64,000 nt of DNA. It comes from Mycobacterium basiliense (lineage in GTDB: Bacteria; Actinomycetota; Actinomycetes; Mycobacteriales; Mycobacteriaceae). Numbering within the stretch: the first letter of the stretch is position 1; the number at the start of each line of letters is the position of its first letter. Positions 23,185-36,763 of this stretch are shown one piece after another. Under the pieces are notes generated by a model that searched no databases, had not been told where the DNA came from, and saw only the letters and a list, made by a program, of their open reading frames with translations. The stretch covers positions 1,984,001-2,048,000 of the forward strand of contig NZ_LR130759.1 in assembly GCF_900292015.1 (NCBI RefSeq). The letters run 5' to 3'. The position numbers and the translations under genes were made by a program.

Positions 23185-24395
23185 GCACCTTGACCGCCGT
23201 GCAGGCCCGTCGGGTGGCGGTCGCCGCACAGGGTCTCGCCGAGCCCAAACCGAGCGGTCCGGTCACGCGGGCGCACCTCAAGCGGCTCATCTCGCGCATC
23301 CAGGTTCTTCAGCTGGACTCGGTTTCGGTGGCCGTGCGCGCGCACTATGCACCGGTGTTCAGCCGGCTCGGCGGGTACGACCGCGATGTGCTGGACCGGG
23401 TGACTTGGGGCCCGCGCTCGTCGCGGCTGCTGGTCGAATACTGGGCGCACGAAGCCGCCCTGATGGCCGTCGACGATTGGCCGCTGCTGCGTTGGCGGAT
23501 GCGCCAATACCGGCACGGTCGCTGGGAGACTCACATCGTGAAAGGCAATCCCCGGTTGGCCGACGACATCGTAGCCGCGGTCACCGAGCTGGGGCCCAGT
23601 ACCGCCGGCCAGATCGAGGCGTACCTGGCGGCGGAGCCGACTGCGGCCAAGGGCCCTTGGTGGAATCGCAGCGACACCAAGTGGGTCGCCGAAGCGTTGT
23701 TCGCCTCGGGAGTGCTCACCACGGCCACCCGGGTCGGCTTCGCCCGGCATTACGACCTGGTAGAACGGGTGCTGCCGCCGCACGTTCTGGCCCGGCAGGT
23801 CGACGACGGCGAGGCCGTTCGCGAGCTCACATTGCGGGCCGCCACCGCTCTGGGAGTGGGCACCGAAGCCGACATCCGCGACTATTTTCGCCTGTCCGCG
23901 CAACAGGTCAAGCCCGCGATCGCGGACTTGGCGGCTGCCGGTGAACTCGAGCGCCTCAACGTCGAGGGCTGGTCTGCGCCGGCGTATTTGGCCGCGGGCC
24001 GGTCGCTGCCGCGCCGAGACCGTGGTACCGCGCTGTTGTGTCCGTTTGACCCGCTGATCTTCTTTCGGCCCCGAGTGGAGCGGCTGTTCGGCTTTCACTA
24101 CCGGATCGAGATCTACACTCCGGCGGCCAAACGCCGCTACGGCTACTACGTGTGGCCGCTGCTGCTGGACGGGCAGCTCGTCGCTCGAGTGGATCTCAAG
24201 GCGGACCGGGCCGCCGACACATTGCGCGTGGTAGGCACTTTCGGCGAACCTGACGTGTCCGGTCCCCGGGTGGCCGCAGCGCTGGCCGGGGAGCTGACCG
24301 CGATGGCGTCCTGGCTCGGGCTGGGTGGGGTCAGCGTTTCCGACCGGGGTGATCTGGCCGGGCAGTTGCGCACAGAAATCACCCGGGCCGGCTGA
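23181..24395 (+). CDS. YcaQ-like winged-helix DNA glycosylase family protein, 404 aa
   Basis: Matches the HTH_42/YcaQ pattern: [40 protein letters not shown] near the N-terminus, [27 protein letters not shown], and the C-terminal [42 protein letters not shown]. Bacterial YcaQ/AlkX unhooks interstrand crosslinks; actinobacterial members are mostly untested. ATG 23181 overlaps the dfrA stop, and its stop overlaps hsdM (TGATG), so thyA-dfrA-ycaQ-hsdM-hsdS reads as one continuous unit. Confidence 0.82.
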
Positions 24396-25831
24396 TGGCC
24401 ACCTCGACGACCAGGGACCTCAACGAGACCCTCTGGAAGGCCGCCGAAAAGCTGCGCGGATCGCTGCCGGCCAGCCAATACAAGGACGTCGTGTTGGGGC
24501 TTGTTTTCTTGAAGTACGTCTCTGACGCGCGCAAGGAGCACAACGCACTTGTGGTGCCGCCCGCGGCGCACTGGGAATCGTTGGCGGCCAACGCGACGTC
24601 GCCGACGATCGGTCAGCTTGTCGACGAGGCGATGCGGGCGCTGATGCGGGATAATCCGTCGCTTGCCGGGATGTTGCCGCTGCTGTTTCGCAACGTGGAC
24701 CGGCGTCGGCTCGGAGAACTGATCGACGTGCTTGGGCAAACGCGGTTCGGTAGGTCGGGTAATCGTCGAGCGCGTGACCTGATCGGTGAGGTCTACGAGT
24801 ACTTCCTCGGCAATTTCGCCCGCGCGGAAGGCAAGCGGGGCGGCGAGTTCTTCACGCCGCCGTGTGTTGTTGCGGTGATCGTCGGAGTTCTCGAACCGTC
24901 AAAGGGGCGGGTGTATGACCCGTGCTGCGGTTCCGGCGGGATGTTCGTACAAACCGAACGGTTCATCGCCCAACATGACGGGGACCGCAATAAGGTGTTG
25001 CTCTACGGCCAGGAGAGTGTCGAGCAGACCTGGCGAATGGCGAAAATGAACCTGGCGGTCCACGGCATCGACGACATCGGCTTGGGTACCTGCTGGGCGG
25101 ATACATTCGTCACCGATCACCACGCTGGCGTTCAGATGGATTTCGTGATGGCCAATCCGCCTTTCAATATCAAGGATTGGGCCCGAGACCAGCACGACCC
25201 GCGGTGGTGCTTCGGCGTCCCACCTGCCGGAAACGCAAACTTCGCTTGGATTCAGCACATCCTGTCGAAACTGGCGCCACGCGGCAAGGCCGGTGTGGTG
25301 ATGGCCAACGGCTCGATGTCGTCGACAACCAACGGGGAAGGTGAAATTCGCGCTCGGATCGTCCAGGCCGACCTGGTGTCGTGCATGGTCGCCTTGCCCA
25401 CCCAGTTGTTCCGCAGCACTGGAATTCCGGTGTGTCTGTGGTTCTTTGCCCGGGACAAGGGCGAGCGATCTGGTCAGGTGTTATTCATCGACGCGCGCGG
25501 CCTCGGGCACCTGGTGGACCGCACGGAGCGCGTACTGACCCGTGAAGACATTGCCCGCATTGGCGATACATACCACGCCTGGTTCGCGAAAAGACTCGTA
25601 TACAAGGATGTTGCCGGGTTCTGCAAATCGGCTTCGCTGGACGACATCAGGGCCGGCGGGTACGTGCTCACGCCGGGAAGATATGTGGGTGCGCCCGCGG
25701 GCCTGGGCGACGCCGAACCCGTTGACGAGAAGATGGCCCGGTTGACGACGGACCTGGTGGCCGCGCTCGATGAGTCCGCGCGGCTGGACAAGATCGTGCG
25801 CGACCAGGTGGAGCGCCTTCGGTGCACGTGA
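24395..25831 (+). CDS. hsdM: Type I restriction-modification methyltransferase subunit, 478 aa
   Basis: N6-adenine methyltransferase. The N-terminal HsdM helical domain starts TRDLNETLWKAAEKLRGSLPASQYKDVVLGLVFLKYVSDA; motif I is YDPCCGSGGMF near residue 175 and catalytic motif IV is NPPF near 254-257. C-terminal part GVVMANGSMSS and LPTQLFRSTGIPVCLWFF is normal for the family. Shorter than the roughly 540 residues I remember for H37Rv HsdM but with all motifs. Overlaps hsdS. No hsdR is found in the window, so the pair probably acts as a stand-alone methyltransferase unless hsdR is elsewhere. Confidence 0.94.
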   Translation: MATSTTRDLNETLWKAAEKLRGSLPASQYKDVVLGLVFLKYVSDARKEHNALVVPPAAHWESLAANATSPTIGQLVDEAMRALMRDNPSLAGMLPLLFRNVDRRRLGELIDVLGQTRFGRSGNRRARDLIGEVYEYFLGNFARAEGKRGGEFFTPPCVVAVIVGVLEPSKGRVYDPCCGSGGMFVQTERFIAQHDGDRNKVLLYGQESVEQTWRMAKMNLAVHGIDDIGLGTCWADTFVTDHHAGVQMDFVMANPPFNIKDWARDQHDPRWCFGVPPAGNANFAWIQHILSKLAPRGKAGVVMANGSMSSTTNGEGEIRARIVQADLVSCMVALPTQLFRSTGIPVCLWFFARDKGERSGQVLFIDARGLGHLVDRTERVLTREDIARIGDTYHAWFAKRLVYKDVAGFCKSASLDDIRAGGYVLTPGRYVGAPAGLGDAEPVDEKMARLTTDLVAALDESARLDKIVRDQVERLRCT

Positions 25832-26883
25832 GGCTGGGTGATCATCTCGACTTCCGCAACGGAAGTTGCTCGCCCACGCGCACGGCGGGCGGGCACATTC
25901 CCGTCTATGGCTCCAACGGCGCGATCGGATTCGCGGCAGAACACAACGCGACCGGCCCCCTGATCGTAGTGGGACGCGTCGGATCATATTGCGGCAGCCT
26001 GCATTACTGCGAGGCCGATATCTGGGTCACCGACAACGCGTATCTGTGCCGAGCTAAAGAGGCCGACGAGACGCGATTCTGGTATTACGCGTTGCAACTC
26101 TGCCGCCTCAACAAGTACCGCGTCGGATCCGGCCAGCCACTGCTCAATCAGCGGACGATCCGCGATGTTTCGGTGCAGGTTCTCGAGCCTCGTCAACGTC
26201 GGCCGGTCGCAGAGTTGCTCGGCGCCCTCGACGACAAGATTGCCGCCAACCAACGCGTGATCGAGGCCGCAGAGGCCTTGATGATTGCCATTGTCGAGTC
26301 GATCTGCGACCACGTGCCGCTGTCGAGCCTGGCGATTCGTTCGGCCGCATTCCTCGATCCTGAAGAATTCGATGACGTCGTAGCGCATTTCAGCCTTCCG
26401 GCGTTCGACGATGGTGCGCAACCACAGCTGGTCAACGGTGGATCGGTACGGAGCGGAAAGTTTGTGCTCTCGGTGCCGTGCGTGCTATTCGCAAAGCTCA
26501 ATCCGAGGATTCCGCGGGTCTGGAACGTGCTGACGCTGCCTACGCGGATGGCGTTGGCAAGCACGGAGTTCGTCGTACTGCGGCCCATCGACATCGACAC
26601 CTCGGCGTTGTGGTCGGCGCTACGACAACCCGAAGTCACCAACACCTTACGACAGCAGGTTGCTGGAACGTCGGGGAGTCACCAGCGCATCCAGCCGCGC
26701 GATTTGCTCGATGTCCGGGTACCGGATGTGCGTCGCCTGACGAGCGTGGCGGCGCAGACGATCACCAGTCTTGGGGCCATGTGTCAGGCACACCGCACCG
26801 AGTGCATCAGGCTCTCTGTCCTGCGCGACGCGTTGCTTCCGCTGCTGATGTCCGGTCGGGTCCGGCTCGAGGTTCGGCGGTAG
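25822..26883 (+). CDS. hsdS: Type I specificity subunit, intact, 353 aa
   Basis: Two target-recognition domains: residues about 5-150 (VRLGDHLDFRNGSCSP ... PVYGSNGAIGF ... GSGQPLLNQRTIRDVSVQV) and about 170-330 (VLFAKLNPRIPRVW ... SGSHQRIQPRDLLDVRVP), separated by the conserved helix LLGALDDKIAANQRVIEAAEAL and closed by LRDALLPLLMSGRVRL. GTG 25822 or GTG 25828 (GTGA overlap with the hsdM stop). The recognition sequence cannot be read. In H37Rv the hsdS material is split into pieces around vapBC genes; here it is contiguous with hsdM, probably the ancestral state. Confidence 0.93.
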   Translation: MHVRLGDHLDFRNGSCSPTRTAGGHIPVYGSNGAIGFAAEHNATGPLIVVGRVGSYCGSLHYCEADIWVTDNAYLCRAKEADETRFWYYALQLCRLNKYRVGSGQPLLNQRTIRDVSVQVLEPRQRRPVAELLGALDDKIAANQRVIEAAEALMIAIVESICDHVPLSSLAIRSAAFLDPEEFDDVVAHFSLPAFDDGAQPQLVNGGSVRSGKFVLSVPCVLFAKLNPRIPRVWNVLTLPTRMALASTEFVVLRPIDIDTSALWSALRQPEVTNTLRQQVAGTSGSHQRIQPRDLLDVRVPDVRRLTSVAAQTITSLGAMCQAHRTECIRLSVLRDALLPLLMSGRVRLEVRR

Positions 26884-26914
26884 CGGCGACACCGGAGTAA
26901 CGGTCCCCGAGTGG

Positions 26915-29428
26915 CTACGTTTCGGCGGTGGCGCGGCACCGCTGATCCTCGTTGCTCTCGGTGGCCGACGGCACCGGCGAGGATTGGTCACCGGCTGGGC
27001 GAATCTGTTGGCCCACGGCAACGTTAGCGACCGCCTCGCTGAGTAGGGCGCCGGAGTAGTCATCACTGGTTCGCACATAAAGGCAGGTGTGTTCGGTACG
27101 GGCGCCAAAGCGGCGCTTCTCGATCTCGGCGTCCATACCCATCCGTAGTGCGCACATCGAAAGGGCGCGTGCCCTGCGAACCCAGTGCAGAATCATCGAA
27201 CGGTATATGTCGTGATCGCGCCAGCTGTCGTCGAGGCCGCAGAGGAAGGGTGCGTAGGTCTTGCCGTGCTTGTGCGCGGCCCAGAATGCGACCGGCTGCG
27301 GGGGGCCCCCAGCGTCGGCGCGAATCCGTATCACACCAAGCTCCCAGGAGGGGCTGCGCAGCATCGCTGGCAGGAGCGTGGCCGGCAGGCGGAATAGGTT
27401 GAGCCGCAACTTTCTTCCCTCCAGCTGCTCAAAGAGGCCGTGCAGATGCATGGTCTCCTCGAAGGTCAACGACGCCAGTCCGGCTCCGTGGAAACTAACG
27501 TCCGTTGCCTTCACGTGCTCGAAAACGGGCCGCAGCTGATAACGCTTCTTCTTGTCAAGCGCGGCATACCATTTCGCCTCATCCATGCCGTCGAGGGTTA
27601 GTGTGTGAGTGTCGAGCATCGGCACCCTCGATAGGCCTTCGTCGAGCATGAATGCCTGCATTTCGGGATCGCCGGCGGGCAGGTCGCGGAAGATGATCGT
27701 TCGTGCCTCGCTGCGTTCGGCTTCGTCGTCGACGGCGGCCAATATCATTCGCAGCGCGTCCCGCCAGGCGGCTGTCCGGTCGAGGTAGACGTGATTTCCC
27801 TCGGACAACGGAGAACCGGTCATCACCGCCTTGGACGTGAGATAGTACGGGTCTGTTGCGCGCCGCTGTTCCAGTTCTCGGGAAACCTCCTCCGCGGAAA
27901 GCATGTCGTCCTTCAACAGCAGTGTGGTGACAAACGTAGCCGCGATGACACGCCCAGTGCGGTCGCGGACAAGGAGATAACGGAACGTCCAGCGGTGCTC
28001 GGGCCTTGCGTTTCCAACGTCGTAAACTGCCTCGGCGGCAGCCATCGCCTCCCAGCTGCAATGCGCGGCCTCGCCCAAAACGCTGTCCCAGGTAGCCCGG
28101 TCGAGGTGTCGGATCGAGGTCGCGCTCTCCATCCGTAGCTCGGTGCCTGCCAGCGACTGTGCCGTAAGGTACGCGCGCGGGCTCGCGCTTGCGAGCACAT
28201 CGGTCGATTGACTCTCGGGCACCTGGAAATCGCGGAGGACCGCGGGGATATGAACGGCCAATCGATCGACGACCCGGTCGATCTCGGCGAAGCTGTGCGC
28301 AGCGGTGATGCTGAGCCGAATGCCTCCGTGCTTCATCGGGACCGAGGGAAAAACCGAGGAATTCACGTAGATGCCGTCATCGAGCATCCGGCTGGCGACC
28401 TCGTAGGCGACCCGGGGAAGACCGCAATGTAGGAAGAAGATCGGGGTCTCATTGATCGCCATGGCCGAGAGCCCGGCCTCGGCCAGCCGCGCATTGACCC
28501 GGTCCACGCGGGCCCGCAGAGCTGTCTGCAGCACGACAATTTCTGGACCCAGGTGTATCAGAGCCGAAGCTCGTACCGCGCCGATCATCGGCGGCTGGAC
28601 GGGACCACCGAACATCAGGGGACCGCCACTGGTACGGACCAGATCCAACTCCGCGGGGTCGTCGAACACCAAACAGCCTCCGGCCGCGCCAAATGCTTTG
28701 TTCAACGACGTCGCGACCACTACCCGCTGGTCTCGCGGAAACCTGGACAGAAAGCTGCCTCGGCCGTGCAGTCCCGCCCACGACATTCCGTGCGCGTCAT
28801 CAACGTAGAGCCGCACGTTGGGCGCGATTGCCAGGGCTTCCTGCAGGAGTTGGACAGGCGCGAGGTCGCCATACATGGAGTAGACGCCATCGACACAGAA
28901 CCACACCGTCCGATGCCGGCGAGCCAGTTGCGCAATGGTGTCACCGGCCCGCTCCAGCTGCTCGTGGCGCACTAACTCGACCCGGGTCCCACCCGCACGC
29001 GCCTGGTTGGCGCCGAGGTGTACCGAATGGTGAGCTTGATGATCCAGGACGATCGCGTCCCGTTCGTCTGCCAATACAGGTAGAGCGGCCAGATGCGCCA
29101 ACGTCGTGCTGGGTGTCAGCAGGGCGTGACCACCGAAAAGCTCGGACAGCATGTACTCGGCCCCGCTGTAGAGCGGGTGTGAAAGATAGGCCCGCGAACA
29201 CGAGAACTGGGTGCCGTAGCGTTGTCCCGCCTCGATGACGCCGCCGATGAGGGCGGGATGGAACTCTAAGCCCAGGTAGGAACACGACGAGAAGGAGGTG
29301 ACGGTGCGACCGTCGAGCGTGACGGATCGCCCGTGAAAATACTCATCCTCGGTGTCTAGGAACACCACCCCGCGTTGTCTGGCATCGTCCATAACGTCTT
29401 TAACCACTGTGATCAGTTTGCTGTCCAT
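26915..29428 (-). CDS. Alpha-oxoamine synthase fused to a GNAT-fold acyltransferase domain, 837 aa
   Basis: Residues about 15-400 form a PLP-dependent alpha-oxoamine synthase (8-amino-7-oxononanoate synthase, serine palmitoyltransferase and CqsA group): SSCSYLGLEFHP, DHQAHHSVHLGA (His stacking on PLP), YVDDAHGMSW, and the PLP lysine K244 in ATSLNKAFGAAGG. Residues about 430-800 are a second enzyme of GNAT fold resembling FemAB-like/BioF2 acyltransferases: RYLLVRDRTGRVIAATFVT, LDTHTLTLDGMDEAKWYAALDKKKRYQLRP, FWAAHKHGKTYAPFLCGLD. Expected chemistry: decarboxylative joining of an amino acid and an acyl-CoA into an alpha-amino ketone, then N-acylation. A GAAAGGA site precedes ATG 29428. Second gene of a two-gene unit with the CrtI-like protein 57 bp upstream. 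Not biotin BioF, which has no such fusion. Confidence 0.85.
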   Translation of the reverse strand: MDSKLITVVKDVMDDARQRGVVFLDTEDEYFHGRSVTLDGRTVTSFSSCSYLGLEFHPALIGGVIEAGQRYGTQFSCSRAYLSHPLYSGAEYMLSELFGGHALLTPSTTLAHLAALPVLADERDAIVLDHQAHHSVHLGANQARAGGTRVELVRHEQLERAGDTIAQLARRHRTVWFCVDGVYSMYGDLAPVQLLQEALAIAPNVRLYVDDAHGMSWAGLHGRGSFLSRFPRDQRVVVATSLNKAFGAAGGCLVFDDPAELDLVRTSGGPLMFGGPVQPPMIGAVRASALIHLGPEIVVLQTALRARVDRVNARLAEAGLSAMAINETPIFFLHCGLPRVAYEVASRMLDDGIYVNSSVFPSVPMKHGGIRLSITAAHSFAEIDRVVDRLAVHIPAVLRDFQVPESQSTDVLASASPRAYLTAQSLAGTELRMESATSIRHLDRATWDSVLGEAAHCSWEAMAAAEAVYDVGNARPEHRWTFRYLLVRDRTGRVIAATFVTTLLLKDDMLSAEEVSRELEQRRATDPYYLTSKAVMTGSPLSEGNHVYLDRTAAWRDALRMILAAVDDEAERSEARTIIFRDLPAGDPEMQAFMLDEGLSRVPMLDTHTLTLDGMDEAKWYAALDKKKRYQLRPVFEHVKATDVSFHGAGLASLTFEETMHLHGLFEQLEGRKLRLNLFRLPATLLPAMLRSPSWELGVIRIRADAGGPPQPVAFWAAHKHGKTYAPFLCGLDDSWRDHDIYRSMILHWVRRARALSMCALRMGMDAEIEKRRFGARTEHTCLYVRTSDDYSGALLSEAVANVAVGQQIRPAGDQSSPVPSATESNEDQRCRATAET

Positions 29429-29485
29429 ACCGGCAATATCCTTTCGGTGGGAGCCCGGCTAATGGCCTACCGTGCAGCGAACTTG

Positions 29486-30787
29486 CTAATTGGTGAGTCG
29501 TCGCGATGCCATATGTGCCGCATTTTTTCCTGACTTGGCTGCGGCGCCGGCATGTTCGCCGGGGGGACCGACCGAAGTGCCTAGAAAATAGATGTCGGTA
29601 TCGGGGTCGTAGCTGGAAAGCTTGCCAAAGCCGGCCGGCGGTACATATGGGCTCGGGGCGCTGGAAAGGCCGAGGAGGTCTTCGTACTCCGCGGGAGATA
29701 GGAAGCGCTGATAGATTACGGATTCCCGGAATCCCGGCATGCTTTGTTCGATAGTGCTCAGGATGTACGCGCAGAGCTCTTGCCGCCGATCGGTGGATGG
29801 ATTTCGCTCGCCCCGTGGCAGGGGAATGACGGCGTTGATGGTGTAGTGATCCGGCTGCTCCGGTAGGTCAGAACGAAAGATGTGGAAGCTTGGTGGATGA
29901 GCCCGCAGACCGGCGTCGAGTCGGCGCAACTCCTCAGCGATGCCCGCGTGAAACCATGCGATTGTGTGGTAGCGGCGTGGGTAGGGAAAGGATTTGCGGA
30001 CGGCAAGGAGAAACAATGCCGCCTCGAGGCCGGGTTTAGTGCCTGACGGGAAATGGTTCCAACGGCCCTGGCTGGACAGGACGGCGCGCGCCCAAAAAGT
30101 TCCGGCGGATGTGTGTACGCGCTTGTCGGTACCGTCGGGCTCGACGGCTAGGGATGCACACCCAAAACGCAGTTGTCCGCCCAGCATCTCAAAACGCCGG
30201 ACCATCGCGTCGATCATTCGGCGCGGACCCCCGACCGGGGTGCGGCTTTTCTCGTAGCCGTAATCGAGTTCTTTGGAGAAATTCTGCTGTATTTCGCCGA
30301 CCGTCACATCGTCTGGGGAACGCATCAACGCGTAGATAGGAATGCAAGCGGCGGCCGCAAGCAGCGGATCTTGCAGATGTGCGTCGATGAGCTGGCCAAC
30401 CGTCTGCTGTGGGGTCCGGCGCGCAGCGCGGATTGCGGACAGAATGCCGGGGGATCGGCGAACGAGTTTCAGCGACGTCGACACGGTCGGCGGCAGATTG
30501 ATGGCATGACTTCCGAGATGAAAGCGGGCCTTGGGCGCCAGGAATTCAGCTTTGACACCCAGCGCGACGAGGCTTTGTTCCAGGCCGCGACCGAAGTCGT
30601 TGCAGCCGGTGACAAACTCGTAGCCATCGATGAAAAATGTCCCGCAGAGTCCGCCCGGAACCGTGCGGCGCTCCAGGATCAGAGTGCTAATGCCCTGTTG
30701 CTGGAGATAGATGCCGGCGGTGAGCCCGGCGATGCCACTGCCGACTACTATCGCATCGAATCGATATGAGAGGTCTAGAGCGCGCAT
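29486..30787 (-). CDS. FAD-dependent oxidoreductase, phytoene desaturase (CrtI)-like, 433 aa
   Basis: N-terminal FAD-binding motif FDAIVVGSGIAGLTAGIYLQQQG followed by ERRTVPGGLCGTF, the CrtI/all-trans-retinol saturase pattern. Mid-region LDYGYEKSRTPVGGPRRMIDAMVRRFEMLGG is also conserved in that group, and the C-terminus has TDIYFLGTSVGPPGEHAGAAAKSGKNAA. ATG 30787 begins directly at the Rossmann fold; upstream in-frame codons (to 30988) have no similarity. No isoprenoid or phytoene synthase gene is nearby, so carotenoid work is unlikely; desaturation or saturation of the oxoamine lipid made by the downstream enzyme is more plausible (inference). Confidence 0.85.
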   Translation of the reverse strand: MRALDLSYRFDAIVVGSGIAGLTAGIYLQQQGISTLILERRTVPGGLCGTFFIDGYEFVTGCNDFGRGLEQSLVALGVKAEFLAPKARFHLGSHAINLPPTVSTSLKLVRRSPGILSAIRAARRTPQQTVGQLIDAHLQDPLLAAAACIPIYALMRSPDDVTVGEIQQNFSKELDYGYEKSRTPVGGPRRMIDAMVRRFEMLGGQLRFGCASLAVEPDGTDKRVHTSAGTFWARAVLSSQGRWNHFPSGTKPGLEAALFLLAVRKSFPYPRRYHTIAWFHAGIAEELRRLDAGLRAHPPSFHIFRSDLPEQPDHYTINAVIPLPRGERNPSTDRRQELCAYILSTIEQSMPGFRESVIYQRFLSPAEYEDLLGLSSAPSPYVPPAGFGKLSSYDPDTDIYFLGTSVGPPGEHAGAAAKSGKNAAHMASRRLTN

Positions 30788-31268
30788 ATTGTTTTCGGTA
30801 GCTGGATGCCGATATCGACATATTTTGGGCGTGACCAGTTCACGATATTTTCCCGGAGTCGCACGGCGTTTGTTGACCCATCCGTCGCGAACCTTCCCGC
30901 GATAAAATATCGATCTGGTGGCACATTTGTGCACCCTCTCCGCAACCCACGACAACTCGGCCGTCGGCTGGTGTTCGCTGACAGGCAAAGCAGTTTGGAG
31001 GAATCGTCATGTCAGGGGGCCGCAATGACGTCCATGCGGGCTAATGATGCACAGCTTGTCGCAGCAATTCACGGGCATTTCTTCCGAACCGGTAGCGAAC
31101 GGGTGTGCAGTATGCATATTTGCGGTGTGATGTGCTCGTGGTGTTTGTTGGGTCGTTGCGACGGTCGCGTTCGGCGGCGGTGCCGACCGCCCACGTGCCC
31201 ACCTGGACACCCACCCGGACCGAATGCCGGGCAACTCCGGATGCTTGCTCGGCGCTAGGGTGAGCGCC
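30788..31268. other. 481-bp intergenic region between the biosynthetic pair and thyX
   Basis: No convincing gene. The side next to the CrtI-like start is AT-rich for this genome, with repeated ATATTTT patterns (30811-30826, 30843-30851 and, inverted, 30900-30913) around a 15-bp palindrome. The thyX side shows nothing distinct. Confidence 0.5.
30830..30844. promoter_or_regulatory. Palindrome CGTGA-N5-TCACG upstream of the CrtI-like gene
   Basis: CGTGACCAGTTCACG, perfect 5-bp arms, centred 50 bp before the ATG at 30787. Flanked on both sides by ATATTTT tracts. Arm sequence resembles half of the Crp site TGTGA-N6-TCACA, but the spacer is 5, so a dedicated regulator is equally possible. Confidence 0.45.
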
Positions 31269-33042
<1,774 letters not shown>

Positions 33043-33060
33043 GCTGTAGGTGAGTCACAG

Positions 33061-34737
33061 GTGAACGAAGACCTTCCCCCGCCCGGCCCGTTGGCCGCAG
33101 GTGGGCTGCGGGTCACCGCTCTCGGCGGAATCAACGAAATCGGCCGCAACATGACGGTTTTCGAACATCTGGGACGGCTGCTGATCATCGACTGCGGGGT
33201 ACTTTTTCCGACCCACGACGAGCCGGGCGTCGATTTGATCCTGCCCGATCTGCGGCATATCGAGGATCGGTTGGATGACATCGACGCCTTGGTGCTCACC
33301 CACGCCCACGAGGACCACATCGGGGCGATCCCGTTTCTGCTCAAGTTGCGGCCAGACATCCCGATCGTCGGCTCGAAGTTCACCTTGGCATTGGTTGCCG
33401 CCAAATGTCGGGAGCACCGCATCAAGCCGGTGTTGGTCCACGTCGCGGAGGGACAGAGCAGCAGACACGGGGTTTTCGAGTGCGAGTACTTCGCAGTTAA
33501 TCATTCGATTCCGGATGCGCTGGCCATCGCCGTCTACACCGGCGCGGGAACCGTCCTGCACACCGGCGACATCAAGCTCGATCAACTACCCCTCGACGGC
33601 CGCCCGACGGATCTGCCTGGGATGTCACGGCTCGGTGACGCCGGTGTGGATCTGTTTCTGTGTGATTCCACCAACTCCGAAATCCCGGGTGTCGGACCGT
33701 CCGAAAGTGAAGTGGGCCCGACGGTGCACCGGCTGATACGGGGCGCCGGGGGCCGGGTCATTGTGGCGTGTTTTGCCTCGAATGTGGACCGGGTGCAACA
33801 GATCATCGATGCCGCGGTGGCGTTGGGCCGGCGGGTGTCGTTCGTCGGGCGATCGATGGTGCGCAACATGGGTATCGCGCGGGAACTGGGATTCCTGCGG
33901 GTTGACAATTCCGACCTGGTCGACATCGCTGCCGCCGAGATGTTGCCGCCCGACCAGGTGGTGCTGATCACCACCGGCACCCAGGGCGAGCCGATGTCGG
34001 CGCTGTCGCGCATGTCGCGTGGCGAACATCGCAGCATCACACTGACTTCGGGTGACCTCATCGTGCTGTCGTCGTCACTGATCCCAGGCAACGAGGAGGC
34101 GGTTTACGGCGTTATCGATTCGCTCTCCAAGATCGGCGCCCGGGTCGTCACCAACGCCCAAGCCAGAGTGCATGTTTCCGGCCACGCGTACGCCGGTGAA
34201 CTGCTCTTTTTGTACAACGGGGTGCGGCCCCGTCACGTCATGCCGGTGCACGGAACGTGGCGGATGCTTCGGGCCAACGCCAAACTGGCCGCCAGCGCCG
34301 GGGTGCCGGAGGACTCAATTCTGTTGGCGGAGAATGGTGTCAGCGTCGACCTGGTTGATGGCAAGGCCTCGATCGCGGGCGCGGTGCCGGTCGGCAAGAT
34401 GTTCGTCGACGGGCTGATCACCGGCGACGTCGGCGAGATCACCCTGGGTGAACGGCTCATCCTGTCGTCCGGCTTCGTCGCCGTGACCGTGGTGGTGCAT
34501 CGTGGCACCGGGCGTCCGGCGGCGGTGCCGCATCTGCATTCGCGCGGCTTTTCCGAGGATCCCAAGGCGCTCGAACCTGCCGTGCGCAAGGTCGAAGCCG
34601 AGCTGGAATCATTGGTCGCTGCCAGCGTCATTGACCCCATCCGGATCGCGCAGGGTGTGCGTCGCACGCTCGGCAAGTGGGTGGGCGAAACCTACCGCCG
34701 GCAGCCGATGATTGTGCCGACGGTTATCGAGGTCTGA
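33061..34737 (+). CDS. rnj: Ribonuclease J, 558 aa
   Basis: Metallo-beta-lactamase/beta-CASP nuclease: THAHEDHIG zinc motif, HTGDIKLD, CDSTNSE, the beta-CASP region with FASNVDRVQQIIDAA and the C-terminal HVSGHA. Degrades and matures RNA with endo- and 5'-exonuclease activity. Length 558 equals Rv2752c. GTG start. Ends 5 bp from the convergent methyltransferase gene, leaving no room for a terminator between them. Confidence 0.96.
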   Translation: MNEDLPPPGPLAAGGLRVTALGGINEIGRNMTVFEHLGRLLIIDCGVLFPTHDEPGVDLILPDLRHIEDRLDDIDALVLTHAHEDHIGAIPFLLKLRPDIPIVGSKFTLALVAAKCREHRIKPVLVHVAEGQSSRHGVFECEYFAVNHSIPDALAIAVYTGAGTVLHTGDIKLDQLPLDGRPTDLPGMSRLGDAGVDLFLCDSTNSEIPGVGPSESEVGPTVHRLIRGAGGRVIVACFASNVDRVQQIIDAAVALGRRVSFVGRSMVRNMGIARELGFLRVDNSDLVDIAAAEMLPPDQVVLITTGTQGEPMSALSRMSRGEHRSITLTSGDLIVLSSSLIPGNEEAVYGVIDSLSKIGARVVTNAQARVHVSGHAYAGELLFLYNGVRPRHVMPVHGTWRMLRANAKLAASAGVPEDSILLAENGVSVDLVDGKASIAGAVPVGKMFVDGLITGDVGEITLGERLILSSGFVAVTVVVHRGTGRPAAVPHLHSRGFSEDPKALEPAVRKVEAELESLVAASVIDPIRIAQGVRRTLGKWVGETYRRQPMIVPTVIEV

Positions 34738-35618: not shown

Positions 35619-36449
35619 CTACCTCTTATTCACATAGCCCGCGTCGACCGGCAAGGCGACGCCGGTGATGTATCGGGCCTCGTCGGACGCCAGCCACGCA
35701 ACGGCATCGGCAATGTCATCGGCCTGCAGAATCTGCACCGGCAAGGCGTTTCCTGCGCCCAGCGCACCTGTGCCTGCAGCCAACTCGGCAAGCCATTGCA
35801 GGGTGAACTCATTGTTGATCATCGGGGTGTCAACCCCCGATGGATGTACCGAGTTTACCCGGATGCTATGCGGTGCAAGCAAATTAGCGTATAGCCGCAT
35901 CAAACCCACAAGTCCGTGCTTTGCGGCGGTGTAGCCGATGGAGCCGGCATCGGCGCTGCCGATACCGGCCAGCCCGGCGGACGAACTGATCAGGACAATC
36001 GATCCGCCGGCGCCCTGTTCGATCATGGTCGGAATTGCGATATCCACGGTGTGGAAGGCGCCGGTGAGGTTGACGTCGATGACATCGTGCCAACCGTCCA
36101 CCCCCGCCTGCATTGGGGCGATGCCGGCGTTGGCGATGACGATATCGAGTCGGCCGAACTCGCCCAGGCCAGCTTGCAACGCGTTGGTCAGCGAGGCGCG
36201 ATCACGCACATCGGCTTGCTCGGCCACGACGTGGGCGCCGGTGTCCGCTACAAGCTTGGCGGTGAGCGCTAAGTCGTCGGCGGTGCCCAGCGGATATGGC
36301 ACGCTGTCGATCTGCTCGCACAAATCGACCGCGATCACGTTGGCGCCGGCACCGGCCAGCCGCACCGCGTGCGCACGCCCCTGACCGCGTGCGGCTCCGG
36401 TGATGAACGCGACCCGGCCGCTTAGGGGGCCTTCGAGTGGTCGGCCCAT
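35619..36449 (-). CDS. Mycofactocin-type short-chain dehydrogenase (Rv2750-like), 276 aa
   Basis: SDR with [15 protein letters not shown] cofactor loop, ANAGIA, ISSSAGL and [10 protein letters not shown]. The insert following strand 2, [26 protein letters not shown], is the mark of the mycofactocin-coupled SDR group, enzymes that hold NAD(H) tightly and pass electrons to the peptide-derived redox cofactor mycofactocin. ATG 36449 overlaps the ABM stop by one base. Physiological alcohol substrate unknown. Confidence 0.88.
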
Positions 36450-36763
36450 CAGGGGCGGAGCTGTCCTTTGCCTGCGTCGCCGGCGGGAATAGGCTGCATC
36501 AGCTTGATGTCCGGGGGCCCGGCAAGATGCTCGCCCGCCGCCGTGAACATGTTGGCGACCGCGGGCGCGGTGCTGTGTGCGCGAAGTGCCTCTTCGTCGG
36601 CCCATTGCTCGATGAACACGAAGGTCTCGCCCGTGTGGTGCAGCGAGTAGAGCTGGCAGCCGGGTTCGTTGTGTACCTCGGTGACCGCGGCGGTGAGGAT
36701 GTCGCGGACGGTGTCGACCGATTCGGGCTTGACGGTCAGCGTGGCGACGACAACGACGGGCAT
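36449..36763 (-). CDS. Antibiotic biosynthesis monooxygenase (ABM) domain protein (Rv2749-like), 104 aa
   Basis: Single ABM/dimeric alpha-beta barrel domain: [56 protein letters not shown]. Such proteins oxidise or isomerise aromatic or quinone-like substrates without cofactor; some only bind them. Length 104 equals Rv2749. First gene of a three-gene unit with SDR and methyltransferase. Confidence 0.88.

What the first reader, a model, noticed from the sequence alone, without database searches (positions are those of the whole stretch)
26915..30787. Two-gene unit: CrtI-like oxidoreductase plus alpha-oxoamine synthase fused to a GNAT-fold domain, a possible sphingoid/amino-ketone lipid pathway
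The fusion joins a PLP enzyme of the serine palmitoyltransferase/BioF/CqsA group (K244, H133, D210-H213 visible) to a FemAB/GNAT-like acyltransferase. Known bacterial ceramide synthesis uses three activities: an oxoamine synthase, a GNAT-fold N-acyltransferase and a redox enzyme. Here the first two are in one chain and a CrtI-like FAD enzyme is in the same minus-strand unit. No biotin or carotenoid genes are near. The inference is that the pair makes an N-acylated alpha-amino ketone lipid or signal molecule; mycobacteria are not known for sphingolipids.
Basis: partly seen in the sequence, partly recalled or inferred. Interest (0 to 1): 0.9.

Follow-up and report, generated by a model that had tools for sequence, protein, structure and literature searches.

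The report
Fused amino-ketone lipid synthase with flavoenzyme
Two neighbouring genes of a mycobacterium look like a small assembly line for an unidentified fatty amino-ketone lipid, built around a double enzyme that distant bacteria also carry, often beside a sensor gene.

Summary
A 433-aa FAD enzyme (29486-30787, -) and an 837-aa fusion (26915-29428, -) lie 57 bp apart. The fusion's N-terminal half is a complete alpha-oxoamine synthase (AOS); the C-terminal half is a FemAB/GNAT-type acyltransferase (PF13480; profile match to PF04339, E 3e-13). The sphingolipid reading is only partly supported: in a tree the AOS lies outside the serine palmitoyltransferase clade, with uncharacterised 'PRK07505-like' enzymes.

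The pair recurs. It is adjacent in all 4 mycobacterial genomes found with the FAD gene, and in 4 of 7 others (same locus in 1, short contigs in 2). Mycobacterial FAD genes form one clade, but their partner fusions come from three lineages (AU p 3e-58). Relatives sit in a polyketide cluster or behind a fatty-acyl ligase with a carrier domain; elsewhere a histidine kinase is the next gene in 31 of 78 loci (12 of 717 genes farther away). The same genome also holds a BioF2-like fusion of the two domain types in reverse order.

Best reading: a specialised pathway to an N-acylated alpha-amino-ketone lipid, oxidised or desaturated by the FAD enzyme.

The parts
29486..30787 (-). FAD-dependent oxidoreductase, 433 aa, first gene of the unit; small dedicated family
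   Evidence: Pfam DAO/NAD_binding_8; 49 rows (own protein included) down to E 5.9e-56, then a gap to 6.5e-7; tree
26915..29428 (-). 837-aa fusion: alpha-oxoamine synthase plus FemAB/GNAT acyltransferase
28256..29332 (-). AOS (PLP) domain, residues about 33-391, with H133, D210, H213, K244, R371
   Evidence: NCBIfam and PDB matches; residues identical in 25 of 25
27083..28117 (-). FemAB/GNAT-type acyltransferase half, residues about 438-782 (PF13480 hit at 655-771)
   Evidence: Pfam; Pfam over 14 halves; profile-profile match to PF04339 proteins, control
29429..29485 (-). 57-bp gap between FAD stop and fusion start, same strand; suggests one transcript (inferred)
   Evidence: sequence; the consensus scan of 26700-31400 found no promoter-like site above chance

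Best explanation
The two genes form a small specialised-lipid pathway. (1) The PLP-dependent AOS domain condenses an acyl thioester (acyl-CoA, or an acyl or polyketide chain on a carrier protein) with an amino acid, with loss of CO2, giving an alpha-amino ketone. (2) The FemAB/GNAT domain of the same chain acylates the amino group with a second acyl thioester, which also protects the reactive amino ketone. (3) The dedicated FAD enzyme oxidises or desaturates the acylated product. The result would be an N-acylated alpha-amino-ketone lipid, chemically like a 3-keto-ceramide but probably a specialised metabolite or signal rather than a bulk membrane sphingolipid. Shown here by sequence: the domains, the conserved catalytic residues, and the recurrent pairing. 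Inferred: every substrate, the order of steps and the product.
For: Complete AOS with all tested catalytic residues. C-terminal half matches PF04339 proteins over 315 collinear columns (unrelated control prob 0.2). A second, reversed fusion of the same two domain types lies in the same genome beside an ACP and an AMP ligase. FAD gene adjacent in 4 of 4 mycobacterial genomes found with it and in 4 of 7 other genomes. One FAD clade joined to three fusion lineages in mycobacteria. Acyl supply beside relatives: PKS genes in G064 and G215, FAAL-like ligase with carrier domain in G236, ligase and ACP in L014.
Against: No acyl-activating gene or PKS is adjacent in the window. G026 has two fusion copies of 72-73% identity and no FAD match, and 18 of 22 fusion genomes reached through loci lack the FAD gene, so step 3 is not universal. 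GNAT substrate unknown; no solved relative of this half was found by sequence. No metabolite data.
Confidence: 0.6

Rival explanations
1. It is a true serine palmitoyltransferase/ceramide pathway with the FAD enzyme in place of the ketone reductase, making mycobacterial sphingolipids.
For: AOS and FemAB-type N-acyltransferase are the two cytoplasmic activities of the Caulobacter pathway (passages of PMC11087976, and PMC11324152). PKS plus AOS makes sphingolipids in Pseudomonas (passages of PMC12134224).
Against: AOS outside the clade with SPTs (100/100); 151.5 and 130.7 bits against SPT cut-offs of 500 and 640. Dawidia soli has a true SPT elsewhere in the genome that carries the fusion. In the window's genome the BioF2-like protein is the SPT-like one.
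Confidence: 0.12
2. The fusion is a signal synthase: the N-acyl amino ketone is a messenger, like CAI-1 or LAI-1, read by a sensor kinase. This is one version of the best explanation with the signal role as the essential claim.
For: Kinase-like gene at +1 in 31 of 78 loci, same strand in 24, against 12 of 717 genes four or more places away; 20 of 67 without the 11 Pontibacter loci. Found in Bacteroidota, Myxococcota, Cyanobacteriota (L010, L012) and, upstream and divergent, Geodermatophilus L013.
Against: No kinase beside the window pair or the other mycobacterial pairs. Many of the kinases have PAS domains (22 of 42), and a kinase may regulate a gene without sensing its product. The CAI-1/LAI-1-type model gives 70.1 bits, cut-off 428.
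Confidence: 0.22
3. The C-terminal half does not N-acylate the amino ketone: it acylates another molecule, or only holds or releases the acyl chain.
For: FemAB-type GNAT proteins use varied substrates, and PF13480 is a broad family (general knowledge); the Pfam score is modest (29.8 bits).
Against: Two independent fusions with AOS, in opposite orders, in one genome; profile match to PF04339, a family found in Caulobacter among the control genomes.
Confidence: 0.15
4. In this species the pair is an orphan remnant without a supply of substrate, on the way to loss.
For: No acyl-supply gene beside it; a window-type fusion is broken in G236 (L087, stops inside); the FAD gene has deviant codon usage.
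Against: Both window frames are open over full length with catalytic residues intact. The genome has many PKS-like stretches (32 matches to the KS-AT query) that could supply chains.
Confidence: 0.07

Closest known systems
BioF2 of M. tuberculosis (Rv0032), with AcpA, Rv0034 and FadD34 (gene order recalled)
   Same: Same two domain types in one chain; the own-genome BioF2-like GNAT half is homologous to the window's (prob 98.6, E 6e-16). Function unknown in both.
   Different: Reverse domain order, an AOS that groups with SPTs, and an ACP and AMP ligase beside it instead of an FAD gene.
Bacterial ceramide pathway (Spt, bCerS/CerS, CerR) of Caulobacter
   Same: AOS followed by a FemAB/GNAT-type N-acyltransferase; both cytoplasmic there (passages).
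   Different: Separate genes there; SPT-clade AOS; a periplasmic NAD(P)-type reductase CerR rather than an FAD enzyme.
CqsA/LqsA autoinducer synthases with CqsS/LqsS kinases
   Same: AOS-family enzyme; many relatives of the fusion have a kinase as next gene.
   Different: No GNAT domain there; the model is far below cut-off here (70.1 of 428 bits); no kinase beside the mycobacterial pairs.
SgaAB, PKS plus AOS, of Pseudomonas fluorescens MYb115 (PMC12134224, passages)
   Same: AOS working with a polyketide synthase, as the G064/G215 context suggests.
   Different: No GNAT domain or FAD enzyme named in the passages seen; the product is a sphingolipid.
Alb29 of Streptomyces albogriseolus (PDB 8xha; name from a passage of PMC11906848)
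   Same: Best solved match to the AOS half (E 6.2e-43).
   Different: Single-domain chain of 401 aa; its pathway was not looked up.
NCBI name 'bifunctional aminotransferase class I/II-fold PLP-dependent enzyme/GNAT family ...' (P0002, P0004 and others)
   Same: This is the annotators' name for close relatives, so the architecture itself is recorded.
   Different: A name only; no function or partner is attached in that listing.

Membership tests
alpha-oxoamine synthases (broad) | PLP lysine, His over the ring, D..H pair and carboxylate-binding Arg | tested here: met
   H133, D210, H213, K244, R371 identical in 25 of 25; residue roles are recalled from AOS literature
serine palmitoyltransferase | NCBIfam SPT model over cut-off and place in the SPT clade | tested here: not met
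   151.5 of 500, 130.7 of 640 and 93.4 of 670 bits; outside the clade, 100/100
serine palmitoyltransferase | Uses L-serine | not testable with these tools
   needs an assay
bacterial ceramide pathway | FemAB/GNAT-type N-acyltransferase partner | tested here: met
   profile match to PF04339 proteins, E 3.2e-13; sequence level only
bacterial ceramide pathway | CerR-type reductase | not tested
   no CerR search was made; the partner gene is an FAD enzyme; the nearest SDR (35619-36605) is a mycofactocin-type one behind thyX, dapA and RNase J
bacterial ceramide pathway (Rhodobacteria type) | ACP and acyl-ACP synthetase beside the AOS | tested here: not met
   not among the window neighbours; present beside G236 and L014 relatives
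BioF2 | GNAT first, AOS second | tested here: not met
   window order is AOS then GNAT; own BioF2-like protein is the reverse
CqsA/LqsA autoinducer synthase | NF005526 over cut-off | tested here: not met
   70.1 of 428 bits
CqsA/LqsA-like system | kinase gene beside the synthase | tested here: inconclusive
   absent at the window; at +1 in 31 of 78 non-mycobacterial loci
PRK07505 subfamily (NF005697) | model over cut-off | tested here: not met
   best model of all, but 251.3 of 342 bits
CrtI / phytoene desaturase (FAD gene) | TIGR02734 over cut-off along the protein | tested here: not met
   55.9 of 238.1 bits, only the FAD-binding N-terminus matched

The most novel reading that the evidence does not exclude
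AOS-GNAT fusions make a new, cross-phylum class of N-acyl alpha-amino-ketone lipid signals, read by the histidine kinases encoded next to them in Bacteroidota, Myxococcota, Cyanobacteriota and Actinomycetota. Mycobacteria captured the synthase at least three times, each time joined to the same lineage of FAD tailoring enzyme, and so make a sphingolipid-like signal of their own.
Probability: 0.22. Interest if true: 0.87.

Novelty: new variant of a known kind. Interest (0 to 1): 0.6.

Why it matters
A passage of PMC12910592 says that sphingolipids were never described in mycobacteria and leaves the role of BioF2 open. Here one mycobacterial genome holds two fusions of the same two activities, in opposite orders and on different AOS clades, which hints strongly that amino-ketone formation and N-acylation belong together in these bacteria. 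A recurrent FAD partner, a polyketide cluster of the kind that PMC5916927 (passages) describes as conserved in pathogenic mycobacteria, and sensor kinases beside distant relatives give concrete routes to a lipid class that searches for classical SPT would miss.

Tried and rejected
Strict sphingolipid pathway: not favoured, on models and tree. Carotenoid or biotin context: none among nearest window neighbours. Plasmid origin: of 650 plasmid records matching the fusion none covers 80% of it; two match the FAD protein, one over 81% at 26.8% identity: uninformative. Solved-structure match for the GNAT half: only two chance-like ribosomal hits at E 0.06 and 0.82. N-terminal part of the L005 kinase: one weak hit, E 0.061. 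Phage families: one weak FAD-motif hit. PF04339 family model on the window's own genome: no match; kinship of the GNAT half to that family shows only in profile-profile comparison and in 3 of 14 members. An AMP ligase near the fusion in L016 was first counted as acyl supply and dropped: the gene between is UbiA-like, which reads as menaquinone genes (by eye). Longest-ORF gene calls misplaced genes in GC-rich loci, so neighbour counts use the later calls (45, 46, 71, 116). The 56 other neighbours scanned were heterogeneous; that answer shows 25 of 72 families. Papers: ten searches, listings only, showed none on this fusion; most subscription papers are not held, and the paper that I recall as defining bCerS is not held. 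Of 12 papers opened, I saw passages of 11 and the outline with abstract of one (PMC12856293).

Against my reading: G026 has the fusion twice and no FAD match at E 1e-60; 18 of 22 fusion genomes reached lack the FAD gene at E 1e-40 (many are incomplete bins); no kinase near the mycobacterial pairs; 11 of the 31 kinases at +1 are from Pontibacter and 7 of 31 lie on the other strand. The 82 loci behind the kinase counts include 11 without a full-length fusion match (71 full); for full fusions the count at +1 is 28 of 67. In the AU test 3 of 8 rows held together (P0003, P0005, P0007) are unnamed and only assumed mycobacterial. Pairs P0003/P0131, P0007/P0128, P0008/P0167, P0038/P0141 and P0075/P0132 were linked by equal contig length only and are not counted. 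Rows dropped: L138, L150, L153 and L159 found no usable AOS stretch for the tree; P0134, P0167 and L116 were left out of the FAD tree; A493 and L160 are long branches.
Full report
WHAT IS THERE. The window lies in a single-contig genome of 5,607,630 bases (G000). That it is a Mycobacterium follows from its relatives; the species is not told. The minus strand carries a 433-aa FAD enzyme (29486-30787) and, 57 bp on, an 837-aa protein (26915-29428). The unit sits between hsdM- and hsdS-like genes (24395-26883) and thyX, dapA and RNase J (31224-34737), all on the plus strand (hsdS by eye). By recall this is the Rv2764c-Rv2752c order of M. tuberculosis, which has no such pair at this place.

DOMAINS. 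The large protein has PF00155 at residues 51-390 and PF13480 at 655-771. Its AOS residues Y51, H133, D180, S184, D210, H213, K244 and R371 are identical in 25 of 25 aligned relatives. The best solved match is 8xha, E 6.2e-43, named Alb29 of Streptomyces albogriseolus in a passage of PMC11906848. The C-terminal half is a FemAB/GNAT-type acyltransferase: PF13480 in 11 of 14 and PF04339 in 3 of 14 halves scanned, and a collinear profile match over 315 columns to PF04339 proteins (prob 97.9, E 3.2e-13). One unrelated control profile gave prob 0.2. The PF04339 model itself found nothing in the window's genome.

WHICH AOS. In a tree of 94 AOS domains one branch (100/100) separates 66 rows from 28. 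The 66 are the AOS-GNAT fusions, standalone PRK07505-like enzymes and a long-branched third AOS of the window's genome. The 28 are hits of an SPT-model search (one over the SPT cut-off), the BioF2-like protein and a fourth AOS of this genome. The best NCBIfam model for the window protein is PRK07505 'hypothetical protein' (251.3 bits, cut-off 342); SPT models reach 151.5, 130.7 and 93.4 bits against cut-offs of 500, 640 and 670. Dawidia soli has a true SPT elsewhere in the genome that carries its fusion. So the fusion is not simply an SPT.

A SECOND, REVERSED FUSION. The same genome has an 809-aa protein with PF13480 at 229-345 and PF00155 at 456-794, followed by an 87-aa ACP, a 131-aa SnoaL-like protein and a 554-aa AMP ligase. 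I recall that layout as BioF2-AcpA-Rv0034-FadD34 of M. tuberculosis; no M. tuberculosis sequence was compared. Its AOS groups with the SPT-like rows (96/78) and gives 376.3 bits to an SPT model. Its GNAT half is homologous to that of the window protein (prob 98.6, E 6.2e-16). A relative at 81% is in G026; 2 of 248 genus genomes drawn match at E 1e-120. Passages of PMC12910592 and PMC6923341 hold BioF2 to be confined to the M. tuberculosis complex. If these two genomes of about 5.6 Mb lie outside the complex, as their size suggests (about 4.4 Mb there, by recall), and if the proteins are BioF2 orthologues, that no longer holds. Two fusions of one pair of activities, in opposite orders and on different AOS clades, argue that amino-ketone formation and N-acylation are one job.

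THE FAD PARTNER. The family is compact: 49 rows (own protein and two fragments included) down to E 5.9e-56, then a gap to 6.5e-7, among 113 hits. In 248 genus genomes the fusion occurs in 5 (E 1e-100) and the FAD gene in 4 (E 1e-60). In those four (G000, G064, G215, G236) it is the fusion's neighbour. Outside, I found it in 4 of 22 fusion genomes and 5 of 282 genomes of one phylum, two of them shared, so seven in all. Four have it adjacent on the same strand (G260, G261, G263, G500), one has fusion, kinase and FAD gene in one locus (G512), and two have it on short contigs without a fusion (G250, G531). Both gene orders occur. The rows known to be mycobacterial lie in one 14-row clade of the FAD tree (100/100; some rows are unnamed). 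Their fusions do not: the window type lies among myxobacterial-type fusions, G064/G215 next to Geodermatophilaceae, G236 among Bacteroidota and others. Holding the mycobacterial fusions together is rejected (p-AU 3.06e-58). One FAD lineage has thus been joined to three fusion lineages. The FAD gene has the most deviant codon usage of 33 called window genes over 300 aa, and in G026 the same hsdS-thyX site holds the fusion without an FAD gene. Late arrival fits both; loss in G026 would too.

WHERE ACYL CHAINS MAY COME FROM. In G064 and G215 the pair follows two large PKS genes and precedes a KS-AT-ACP gene and a type III PKS; a second type III-like gene of the same cluster lies at the other end. 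This resembles the pks10-7-8-17-9-11 cluster of M. tuberculosis (order in a passage of PMC6600245), a double type III PKS cluster that PMC5916927 (passages) describes as conserved in pathogenic mycobacteria. In G236 a ligase with its own carrier domain is directly upstream, and in the cyanobacterium L014 a ligase and an ACP. PMC9386255 (passages) reports an ACP and an acyl-ACP synthetase with proteobacterial SPT genes. At the window no such gene is adjacent, and the KS-AT gene of G064 finds only 51-54% identical matches at best in this genome.

SENSOR GENES. Over 82 non-mycobacterial loci a kinase-like gene is the next gene downstream in 31 of 78 (24 on the same strand), against 12 of 717 genes four or more places away; 20 of 67 without the 11 Pontibacter loci. 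Of 42 kinases scanned, 40 have HATPase_c and 33 HisKA. A small DUF7793 protein accompanies the fusion in 35 loci, mostly Bacteroidota (38 of 38 scanned match). L005, close to the window fusion in the tree, has the kinase 1 bp downstream. This is the pattern expected of a signal synthase and its receptor, but a kinase that merely regulates the gene would look the same.

VERDICT. I commit to a specialised pathway to an N-acylated alpha-amino-ketone lipid, finished by the FAD enzyme, at 0.6. The architecture is known to annotators by name and, in reverse, as BioF2, so I call it a new variant of a known kind. New to me are the recurrent FAD partner, its re-pairing in mycobacteria, and the kinases elsewhere. 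The ten paper searches named under Tried and rejected listed nothing on this fusion.

Noticed in passing
L121:4020-8762 (G000 C1:4324019-4328761): BioF2-like GNAT-AOS protein with ACP, SnoaL-like protein and AMP ligase in the window's own genome and a relative in G026, although two papers hold BioF2 to be confined to the M. tuberculosis complex.
   Followed up: partly
L122:594-5455 and L123:4091-5323 (own genome): Two further AOS genes: 493 aa beside genes that read by eye as MaoC-like, CitE-like and methyltransferase, and 410 aa near an IclR-like regulator; functions unknown.
   Followed up: no
L087 (G236 C1:2125514-2126641): A broken remnant of a window-type fusion (70% identity, stops inside). 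Its open stretch looks identical to part of P0005, which stands for 42 sequences, so intact copies exist elsewhere.
   Followed up: no
L020, L021, L023, L034 and other Bacteroidota loci: Recurrent trio: DUF7793 protein, AOS-GNAT fusion, PAS-type histidine kinase; a candidate signalling module.
   Followed up: partly
L114:4847-6406: An aromatic amino acid lyase (PF00221, E 3.4e-201) directly downstream of an FAD-fusion pair; may supply an aryl acyl unit.
   Followed up: no
G236: L100:12201-14729 and the next gene: Two ABC transporter genes on the opposite strand beside the FAD gene; the one scanned has FHA domains. Possible exporter.
   Followed up: no
window 24395-26883: Type I restriction-modification M subunit (TIGR00497 below cut-off) and an S-like gene beside the pair; the same site holds a fusion in G026.
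   Followed up: partly
window 29486-30787: The FAD gene has the most deviant codon usage of 33 called window genes over 300 aa, suggesting recent arrival.
   Followed up: partly
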